Below, piece by piece: positions 53,713 through 55,668 of a stretch of DNA of 55,855 nucleotides. The notes beneath the pieces are model-generated. The model ran no database searches, was not told the origin of the DNA, and saw only the letters and a program-made list of their open reading frames with translations. Origin of the DNA: Candidatus Gastranaerophilales bacterium (GTDB lineage: Bacteria; Cyanobacteriota; Vampirovibrionia; Gastranaerophilales; Gastranaerophilaceae); the NCBI GenBank assembly GCA_947589425.1, contig CANQAV010000014.1:1-55855 (forward strand), read 5' to 3'. Every line of letters begins with the position of its first letter. Position 1 is the stretch's first letter. Made by a program: the position numbers and the translations under genes.

Positions 53713-54921
53713 TTATTCGATAATTTTATCTACAACGCCGGCACCAACTGTTCTTCCGCCTTCACGGATAGCGAATTTCATACCTTGTTCAATAGCAACA
53801 GGAGTAATTAATTCAACTTCCATTACAACGTTATCGCCGGGCATTACCATCTCGCCGTCGAATTTGATTGAGCCGGTTACGTCAGTTGTTCTGATATAAA
53901 ACTGAGGTCTGTATCCGGGGAAGAAAGGAGTATGACGTCCGCCTTCTTCTTTTTTCAATACATAAACGTTAGCCGTGAATTTTTTGTGAGGTGTGATTGT
54001 TCCGGGTTTAGCCAAAACTTGACCGCGTTGGATTTCAGTTTTATCAATACCACGTAATAATGCACCGATGTTGTCGCCTGCTTGACCTTGGTCAAGAGAT
54101 TTTCTAAACATTTCAACACCTGTTACGGTAGTTTTCTTAGTTTCGCCTAAGCCAACGAGTTCAACTTCGTCGCCTACTTTAACAACACCACGTTCTACAC
54201 GGCCTGTAGCAACAGTACCACGACCCGTGATAGAGAATACGTCTTCAACAGGCATTAAGAACGGTTTGTCTAAATCACGAACAGGTTCGGGGAAGTATGA
54301 ATCGATTGCATCCATAAGTTCCCAAATTTTATCAACCCATTCATCTTCGCCTCTTGCAACTTTAGGATTAGCTTGAACAGCTTCTAAAGCTTTAAGAGCT
54401 GAGCCTCTGATGAAAGGAATGTTGTCGCCGTCAAATTCGTATGAAGTTAACAATTCTCTAACTTCCATTTCAACAAGGTCTAATAATTCAGGGTCATCAA
54501 CCATGTCGCATTTGTTTAAGAATACAACGATATTAGGAACACCAACCTGACGAGCAAGCAAAATGTGTTCTTTAGTCTGAGGCATAGCACCATCTGTTGC
54601 TGCAACTACAAGAATTGCACCATCCATTTGAGCGGCACCGGTAATCATGTTTTTAACGTAGTCAGCGTGTCCGGGGCAGTCAACGTGTGCATAGTGGCGA
54701 GTTGCCGTTTCATATTCAACGTGAGCTGTAGAAATCGTGATACCACGTGCCTTTTCTTCAGGAGCAGCATCGATTTCATCAAATTTTTTAGCTTCAGCTT
54801 GACCTGCTGCAGCCATACAACCTGTGATAGCGGCAGTTAATGTTGTTTTACCGTGGTCTACGTGACCGATAGTACCAACGTTAACATGCGGCTTGGTTCT
54901 TTCGTATTTTTCTCTAGCCAT
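53713..54921 (-). CDS. tuf: elongation factor Tu
   Basis: A 402-residue EF-Tu that delivers aminoacyl-tRNA to the ribosome. [21 protein letters not shown]1 GHVDHGKT (about 19-26), EKARGITI (switch I), DCPGHADY (G3), NKCD (G4), and C-terminal [19 protein letters not shown] and [10 protein letters not shown] are near-universal. An AAGGAG ribosome site is perfect. Codon use is visibly more G/C-rich than neighbouring genes, as expected for high expression. Upstream on the same strand are a repeat-rich spacer and tRNA-Tyr, -Thr and -Thr, the order seen in E. coli-type tRNA-tufB operons. Confidence 0.99.
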
Positions 54922-55023
54922 AGGTTAAATCTCCTTCTTTCTTATTTTATATTTTGTAATTTTCGTGATTGATTTTTGTTTTTATTTTTAGATTTTACGT
55001 GTCTGCCCTTGGGTTAGCGCATT

Positions 55024-55064
55024 TTGCTCCTGTGGAGTTTGCTTTCACAAACTCTTACGTCGCC
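55024..55064. repeat. degenerate partial copy of the 144-bp repeat
   Basis: TTGCTCCTGTGG (55024-55035) and TACGTCGCC (55056-55064) are shared in order with the full repeat copies, but the intervening bases differ. Confidence 0.5.
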
Positions 55065-55150
55065 TTGGTAAGGTTTCCGCACAAGCCCGCCAAGCTTCTC
55101 GCTTGTCGTGCGTGTGCTTCACACACCTTTGCCCACATCTTCGTTCAGCA

Positions 55151-55167
55151 AGAGCGTCCAACGCTCT
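55151..55167. repeat. hairpin upstream of the direct repeats
   Basis: AGAGCGT (55151-55157) and ACGCTCT (55161-55167), a perfect 7-bp stem with a 3-nt loop. Confidence 0.6.
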
Positions 55168-55184
55168 AGCTTCACTCGATTTGG

Positions 55185-55328
55185 GATTGCTCCTGTGGGT
55201 ATCTCGTTAAAACTCGCTTCGCATACGCTGTCACTCGTTTAACTCGATTATCCTACGTCGCCATAGAACGGACTTCGCAACAGCCCATCGATGCCCAACG
55301 CATCGCTGTGCAGTTGCTTCGCACACTT
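55185..55328. repeat. 144-bp direct repeat, copy 1
   Basis: Identical base for base to 55385-55528. It is markedly richer in G and C than the rest of the window and contains a CGATGC/GCATCG hairpin (55289-55305). No convincing reading frame. It lies between tRNA-Tyr and tuf. Confidence 0.95.
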
Positions 55329-55349
55329 AGCTTTTATCTTCGCTTGTTA

Positions 55350-55367
55350 AGTGCGCACAAGCGCACT
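55350..55367. repeat. hairpin in the unique segment between the repeats
   Basis: AGTGCGC (55350-55356) and GCGCACT (55361-55367), 4-nt loop. It is in the 56-bp segment that separates the two 144-bp copies. Confidence 0.65.
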
Positions 55368-55384
55368 AAACTTGCTCGATAAAA

Positions 55385-55528
55385 GATTGCTCCTGTGGGT
55401 ATCTCGTTAAAACTCGCTTCGCATACGCTGTCACTCGTTTAACTCGATTATCCTACGTCGCCATAGAACGGACTTCGCAACAGCCCATCGATGCCCAACG
55501 CATCGCTGTGCAGTTGCTTCGCACACTT
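55385..55528. repeat. 144-bp direct repeat, copy 2
   Basis: An exact copy of 55185-55328 at a distance of exactly 200 bp. Its right edge is 11 bp from the 3' end of tRNA-Tyr. Confidence 0.95.
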
Positions 55529-55538
55529 TATAAAGATT

Positions 55539-55621
55539 TGGGCAGAGGTGGATTCGAACCACCGTAGTCGATTGACGGCAGATTTACAGTCTGCTCCCTT
55601 TAGCCACTCGGGCATCTACCC
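55539..55621 (-). tRNA. tRNA-Tyr (GTA)
   Basis: A long-variable-arm tRNA on the minus strand. The acceptor GGGTAGA pairs with TCTGCCC (one A-G-type mismatch in the stem), the discriminator is A, and the anticodon loop CTGTAAA gives GTA. The T-arm is GGTGGTTCGAATCCACC. It is the last tRNA before tuf. Confidence 0.94.
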
Positions 55622-55668
55622 AAAGAATTTTGTATATTTATTCAATTTTCAAATTACGATTTTTAAAT

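What the first reader, a model, noticed from the sequence alone, without database searches (positions are those of the whole stretch)
55024..55528. Exact 144-bp direct repeat with 200-bp period and hairpins between tRNA-Tyr and tuf
Two identical 144-bp copies (55185-55328, 55385-55528), a degenerate partial copy (55024-55064) and several short hairpins lie in an otherwise AT-rich genome. The 56-bp segment between the copies differs from the sequence before copy 1. The block lies inside what should be the leader of the most expressed gene. It could be a transcribed structured RNA, a processing site, an expanding repeat family or a recent duplication.
Basis: seen in the sequence. Interest (0 to 1): 0.65.

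Follow-up and report, generated by a model that had tools for sequence, protein, structure and literature searches.

The report
Dispersed modular structured repeat beside tuf
The duplicated block between a tRNA gene and the elongation-factor gene tuf is one copy of a previously undescribed family of modular, hairpin-rich repeats scattered through the genomes of an order of gut bacteria (Gastranaerophilales), usually dropped in right behind the ends of genes; it is not a dedicated control region of tuf.

Summary
The repeat is real: two identical 144-bp copies plus a diverged third unit. It is not specific to tuf. It is an array of one member of a dispersed family of structured, mosaic elements in Candidatus Gastranaerophilales: 35 core hairpins in this genome, present in all 28 genomes of the genus, and in 97 of 386 genomes sampled across the phylum, all 97 in this order. 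Most relatives have an empty 60-92 nt tRNA-Tyr/tuf gap, so this is a polymorphic insertion that was tandemly duplicated in place. Read on the tuf strand, each unit is two or three hairpins. The conserved foot GCGACG/CAGGAGC carries a tandem G·A/A·G pair (81 of 95 sequences) that switches as a unit to G-C/C-G (12 of 95). Mismatches are strand-asymmetric (GU 11, AC 1), so the fold is selected on one strand, RNA-like. Elements sit 3' of genes, tRNAs, tmRNA or terminators, often touching or supplying the stop codon; in several prophages their AGGAG lies at Shine-Dalgarno distance from the next gene. No Rfam family matches. This genome has no Y1 transposase, reverse transcriptase or large serine recombinase, so the mobilising enzyme is unknown. 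Closest kinds: REP/BIME and pneumococcal BOX repeats.

The parts
55538..55622 (-). tRNA-Tyr(GTA), upstream transcription unit; the array starts about 8 nt after its 3' end
   Evidence: ARAGORN, Rfam RF00005
55385..55528 (-). exact 144-nt repeat, copy nearest tRNA-Tyr (modules P1+P2)
55468..55526 (-). P1 hairpin of unit A (GUGUGCGAAGC ... GCGAAGUCCGU)
55387..55462 (-). P2 hairpin of unit A, foot GCGACG/CAGGAGC with tandem G.A pairs
   Evidence: R1 match 83.1 bits at 55381-55476
55329..55384 (-). P3b hairpin between the exact copies; its 5' arm starts with AUCUUUUAU, a near copy of the tRNA-Tyr 3' flank AUCUUUAU
55185..55328 (-). exact 144-nt repeat, second copy (modules P1+P2)
55268..55326 (-). 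P1 hairpin of unit B
55187..55262 (-). P2 hairpin of unit B
   Evidence: R1 match 83.8 bits at 55181-55276
55130..55184 (-). P3a hairpin with two tandem G.A motifs
55070..55129 (-). P1 hairpin of diverged unit C
55023..55066 (-).
   Evidence: R1 match 47.7 bits at 55018-55078
54922..55022 (-). remaining tuf leader with RBS (AAGAAAGAAGGAG at 54931-54943); the RBS-proximal part is shared with empty-site relatives
53713..54921 (-). tuf (EF-Tu), downstream gene

Best explanation
The block is a tandemly amplified copy of a dispersed, non-coding, modular element of the small interspersed repeat kind (REP/BIME- or BOX-like), specific to the Gastranaerophilales as far as sampled. Shown: it is multi-copy, mosaic, polymorphic between relatives, and conserves a fold on one strand only. 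It sits behind genes on the same strand more often than not, commonly at the stop codon or after a tRNA, tmRNA or terminator. Inferred: it is transcribed as part of the host transcript, folds as RNA without stopping transcription, and is tolerated because its 5' end carries stop codons and its 3' end an AGGAG ribosome-binding motif, so it can lie inside operons such as rplF-rplR. Inferred: it spreads as a non-autonomous element whose folded strand (RNA or single-stranded DNA) is recognised by an unidentified enzyme, and arrays then grow in place by unequal recombination or slippage between direct repeats. At tuf it most likely has no dedicated role beyond altering the leader.
For: 35 core hairpins in this genome; pattern GCGACGT-N6-35-CAGGAGC 18 times against 0 in the reversed control; all 28 genomes of the genus; 64/146 of the order; 97/386 of the phylum, all 97 within this order. 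Empty orthologous tRNA-Tyr/tuf gaps in most relatives, a different element variant with two exact units in L106. About 20 of 76 relatives carry an element within a few nt of the rplF stop, the rest are empty or hold other sequence. Mosaicism: one P1 type joined to four P2 types, one P2 type joined to five P1 types. Tandem G.A/A.G in 81/95 replaced together by G-C/C-G in 12/95, and a GC/CG swap 83/11; covariation score 0.202 against 0.077 in shuffles and at most 0.053 in slid controls. Hairpin mismatches GU 11 v AC 1, GA/AG 40 v CU/UC 3, GG 11 v CC 0. Upstream ORF same strand 37 v opposite 16. 53/136 P2 modules are followed by a direct repeat of upstream sequence, starting 0-3 nt after CAGGAGC in 34. 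No sense-strand promoter or terminator found in the array.
Against: No mobility enzyme was identified: Y1 transposase in 1/28 genomes of the genus, reverse transcriptase in 12/28, large serine recombinase in 11/28, none of them in this genome. No clean target-site duplication was defined. No transcript data. Placement behind genes could reflect selection against other sites rather than targeting. Single-unit folding energy is unremarkable for the window copy, though a mean z of -2.85 was seen over 32 picked regions, a few of which are spurious.
Confidence: 0.75

Rival explanations
1. A cis-regulatory leader of tuf: the hairpins regulate or process the tRNA-tuf transcript.
For: Lies between tRNA-Tyr and tuf on the sense strand; strongly folded; a few other relatives also have hairpins in this gap (L106, L114, L123).
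Against: Most relatives of the genus have a 60-92 nt gap without it; the same family lies behind many unrelated genes; no Rfam leader or riboswitch family matches.
Confidence: 0.06
2. Host-beneficial structured RNA modules (3' UTR stabilisers, antiterminators or ribosome-loading cassettes) spread by selection and recombination rather than selfish mobility.
For: Strand-specific structure; sense orientation behind genes; AGGAG at Shine-Dalgarno distance of prophage transposase, recombinase and structural genes.
Against: Patchy presence between close relatives and copy number from 2 to 43 within one genus; no conserved association with one host gene class.
Confidence: 0.15
3. The exact second copy is an assembly artefact.
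For: Draft genome in 32 contigs; other array copies lie at contig ends (C15, C2, C3).
Against: The copies are separated by different hairpins (P3b, P3a) and have different flanks; exact tandem units recur at this and other loci in other assemblies. Collapse, not duplication, is the usual short-read error (general knowledge).
Confidence: 0.04

Closest known systems
REP/BIME repeats (GTAG- and CGTC-tagged palindromes, PMC3733652)
   Same: Dispersed palindromic repeats, mostly within 20 bp of the 3' end of genes, sometimes supplying the stop codon; clusters reiterated together with flanking DNA; mosaic in BIMEs; G-T pairs taken as a sign of RNA function; CGTC types lack a known transposase.
   Different: Here units are 100-200 nt with two or three long hairpins, repeated head-to-tail in direct orientation, with a conserved tandem G.A foot and no inverted dimers; no Y1 (RAYT-type) transposase in this genome. 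GACG beside the P2 hairpin is CGTC on the other strand, but here it is part of a paired foot; treated as a lead only.
BOX elements of Streptococcus pneumoniae (PMC3049150)
   Same: Modular non-coding repeats with tandemly variable modules, extensive predicted RNA structure, co-transcribed with host genes, judged parasitic by the authors.
   Different: No boxA/boxC-like fixed end modules seen; different phylum; modules here recombine freely. Sequence homology to BOX was not tested directly.
Rfam cis-regulatory RNAs and structured ncRNAs
   Same: Covarying structure with non-canonical pairs.
   Different: No family other than tRNA matched at gathering threshold in the window, and none matched the elements at E<=5 in 12 element loci.

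Membership tests
REP/BIME mobilised by RAYT | 20-40 nt palindrome with unpaired GTAG or CGTC tag | tested here: not met
   Units are 100-200 nt; foot GCGACG/CAGGAGC is paired through a tandem G.A motif; short P2 types lack GTAG
REP/BIME mobilised by RAYT | Y1 (HUH) transposase in the genome | tested here: not met
   PF01797 in 1 of 28 genomes of the genus, not in this one
REP/BIME mobilised by RAYT | Extragenic, close to 3' ends of genes | tested here: met
   described for REPs in PMC3733652
BOX elements | Mosaic of modules with variable copy number | tested here: met
BOX elements | boxA and boxC end modules | not tested
   BOX sequences were not retrieved; different phylum
MITE | Terminal inverted repeats | tested here: not met
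   Ends read UGCGUAAGCC... and ...CAGGAGC, not inverted copies (by eye)
MITE | Target-site duplication | tested here: inconclusive
   Host flank of about 4-13 nt is repeated after CAGGAGC, but as part of a longer tandem repeat
Group II intron or retroelement remnant | Intron RNA match or reverse transcriptase in the genome | tested here: not met
   No Rfam match; no RVT_1 in this genome
tuf leader RNA | Conserved at the orthologous tuf site | tested here: not met
   Gap empty in most relatives

The most novel reading that the evidence does not exclude
A mobile element selected to move as a folded single strand (RNA or single-stranded DNA), served by an unknown enzyme, and built to slip between cistrons: stop codons at its 5' end and a paired Shine-Dalgarno motif at its 3' end let it enter essential operons, and in prophages it has become the translated leader of transposase and recombinase genes.
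Probability: 0.2. Interest if true: 0.75.

Novelty: new variant of a known kind. Interest (0 to 1): 0.5.

Why it matters
It adds an order-wide family of small interspersed repeats, not matched in Rfam, whose structure is conserved on one strand and which enters essential operons such as rplF-rplR and tRNA-tuf. Because no Y1 transposase, reverse transcriptase or large serine recombinase accompanies it in this genome, it makes the open question of how such repeats spread directly testable. It also warns against reading these arrays as gene-specific leaders.

Tried and rejected
Rfam at gathering (window) and relaxed threshold (12 loci): nothing relevant. Y1 transposase, reverse transcriptase and large serine recombinase as partners in trans: absent from this genome. 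Phage and plasmid collections: no match; three IMG/VR contigs only. Literature on repeats in Gastranaerophilales or Melainabacteria: nothing relevant found. A short reading frame at ATGCGTAAGCC was considered and dropped because the ATG is not conserved.

Full report
What is there. On the minus strand the order is tRNA-Thr, tRNA-Thr, tRNA-Tyr, then 616 nt, then tuf. The 616 nt hold two identical 144-nt stretches (55385-55528 and 55185-55328) and a diverged third unit (55023-55129). Each unit has a long hairpin P1 and a second hairpin P2; between units lie P3 hairpins that differ in sequence but have the same type of fold.

A dispersed family. The unit hits ten places in its own genome by DNA similarity, and a simple core pattern hits 18 with none in the reversed control. 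A covariance model of P2 (R1) finds 35 cores in the genome at E <= 0.01, and at least two in each of the 28 genomes of the genus. In the order 64 of 146 genomes match. A broader model (R2) finds 97 of 386 genomes of the phylum, and all 97 belong to this order, mostly its main family plus single genomes of two other families. The relatives named by an RplF search are Candidatus Gastranaerophilales and related gut MAGs.

Not a tuf feature. In the orthologous gap of the genus most relatives have only 60-92 nt between tRNA-Tyr and tuf. L106 has another variant with two exact units and a partial one; L114 and L123 have single units. The array is therefore a lineage-specific insertion. No sense-strand promoter or terminator was detected in it.

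Where elements sit. In this genome they follow tRNA-Tyr, tRNA-Arg and tRNA-Phe, terminator T-runs, and the stop codons of genes that read as ssb and rplF; at a clpB-like gene and another they supply the last codons. In L099 the element follows tmRNA. In mechanical ORF calls over fetched loci the upstream ORF is on the same strand in 37 cases and opposite in 16 (about p = 0.005 by a sign test, my arithmetic; loci are not all independent). By my reading of that listing, in about 21 of the 37 the stop codon lies within roughly 10 nt of the element or inside its first bases. At rplF-rplR about 20 of 76 complete gaps hold an element starting within a few nt of the stop. A conserved segment before rplR limits where insertions are tolerated, so targeting is not proven. 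In prophages the element can fill the whole space between a stop codon and the next start, with AGGAG 4-10 nt before the start of a MuA-like transposase (L080, L083, L084, L243, L249), a serine recombinase (L240, L097) or a phage structural gene (L230, L247) (gene names are my reading of the translations, not profile searches).

Structure is selected on one strand. Over 95 distinct P2 sequences the foot GCGACG/CAGGAGC keeps a tandem G.A/A.G in 81 and has G-C/C-G at both positions in 12; the neighbouring pair is G-C in 83 and C-G in 11. The pair count exceeds shuffles and slid controls; the alignment was fitted to the model, which inflates pairing somewhat. In 121 distinct hairpins found with Watson-Crick pairs only, isolated mismatches on the sense strand are GU-type 11 against AC-type 1, GA/AG 40 against CU/UC 3, GG 11 against CC 0. 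A duplex-level process would be symmetric; a folded sense strand, RNA or single-stranded DNA, explains the bias. Folding energies are lower than shuffles on average, but not for the single window unit.

Mosaic and tandem growth. In this genome one P1 type is joined to four P2 types and one P2 type to five P1 types. In 53 of 136 P2 modules the upstream sequence, often including the last host nucleotides before the element, is repeated after CAGGAGC, starting 0-3 nt after it in 34 (examples). At tuf the tRNA-Tyr flank AUCUUUAU reappears as AUCUUUUAU after the first CAGGAGC. Arrays thus grew in place. The same reiteration with flanking DNA is described for REP clusters (PMC3733652).

Mechanism. 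Shown: multi-copy, mosaic, polymorphic, strand-specific structure, gene-3' placement. Inferred: transcription, mobility, and recognition of the folded strand by an enzyme. Three obvious enzyme classes are missing from this genome. I therefore file it as REP- or BOX-like in behaviour, not as a member of either family.

Limits. Genomes are draft MAGs and mostly one per species; gene calls are mechanical; elements were ascertained through P2, so solo P1 or P3 modules are undercounted; no expression data; the exact duplication was not checked against reads.

Noticed in passing
L010 1780-1905, L014 1500-1800, L006 1770-1830, L007 1220-1420: A second dispersed repeat family (CATGTCATGCTGAAC..TTCAGCATCTTACC and CCTGAA..TTCAGGGTGACA types) often borders the elements.
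   Followed up: no
L158, L160, L165, L170, L172, L179, L183, L190, L192, L200: just after the rplF stop: Several other repeat-like sequences occupy the same spot after rplF in other species, suggesting that it is a general landing site.
   Followed up: partly
L080, L083, L084, L243, L249: A minimal single-copy element lies 4-7 nt upstream of a MuA-like transposase gene in Mu-like prophages of several genera; its AGGAG could be the gene's ribosome-binding site.
   Followed up: partly
L230 and L231 (G106, family f1; G040, family f7): The same prophage element with matching flanking genes occurs in two different families, pointing to recent horizontal transfer.
   Followed up: no
L107 1-520: The tuf leader of G024 holds a different, long repeat-rich sequence with two near-identical blocks.
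   Followed up: no
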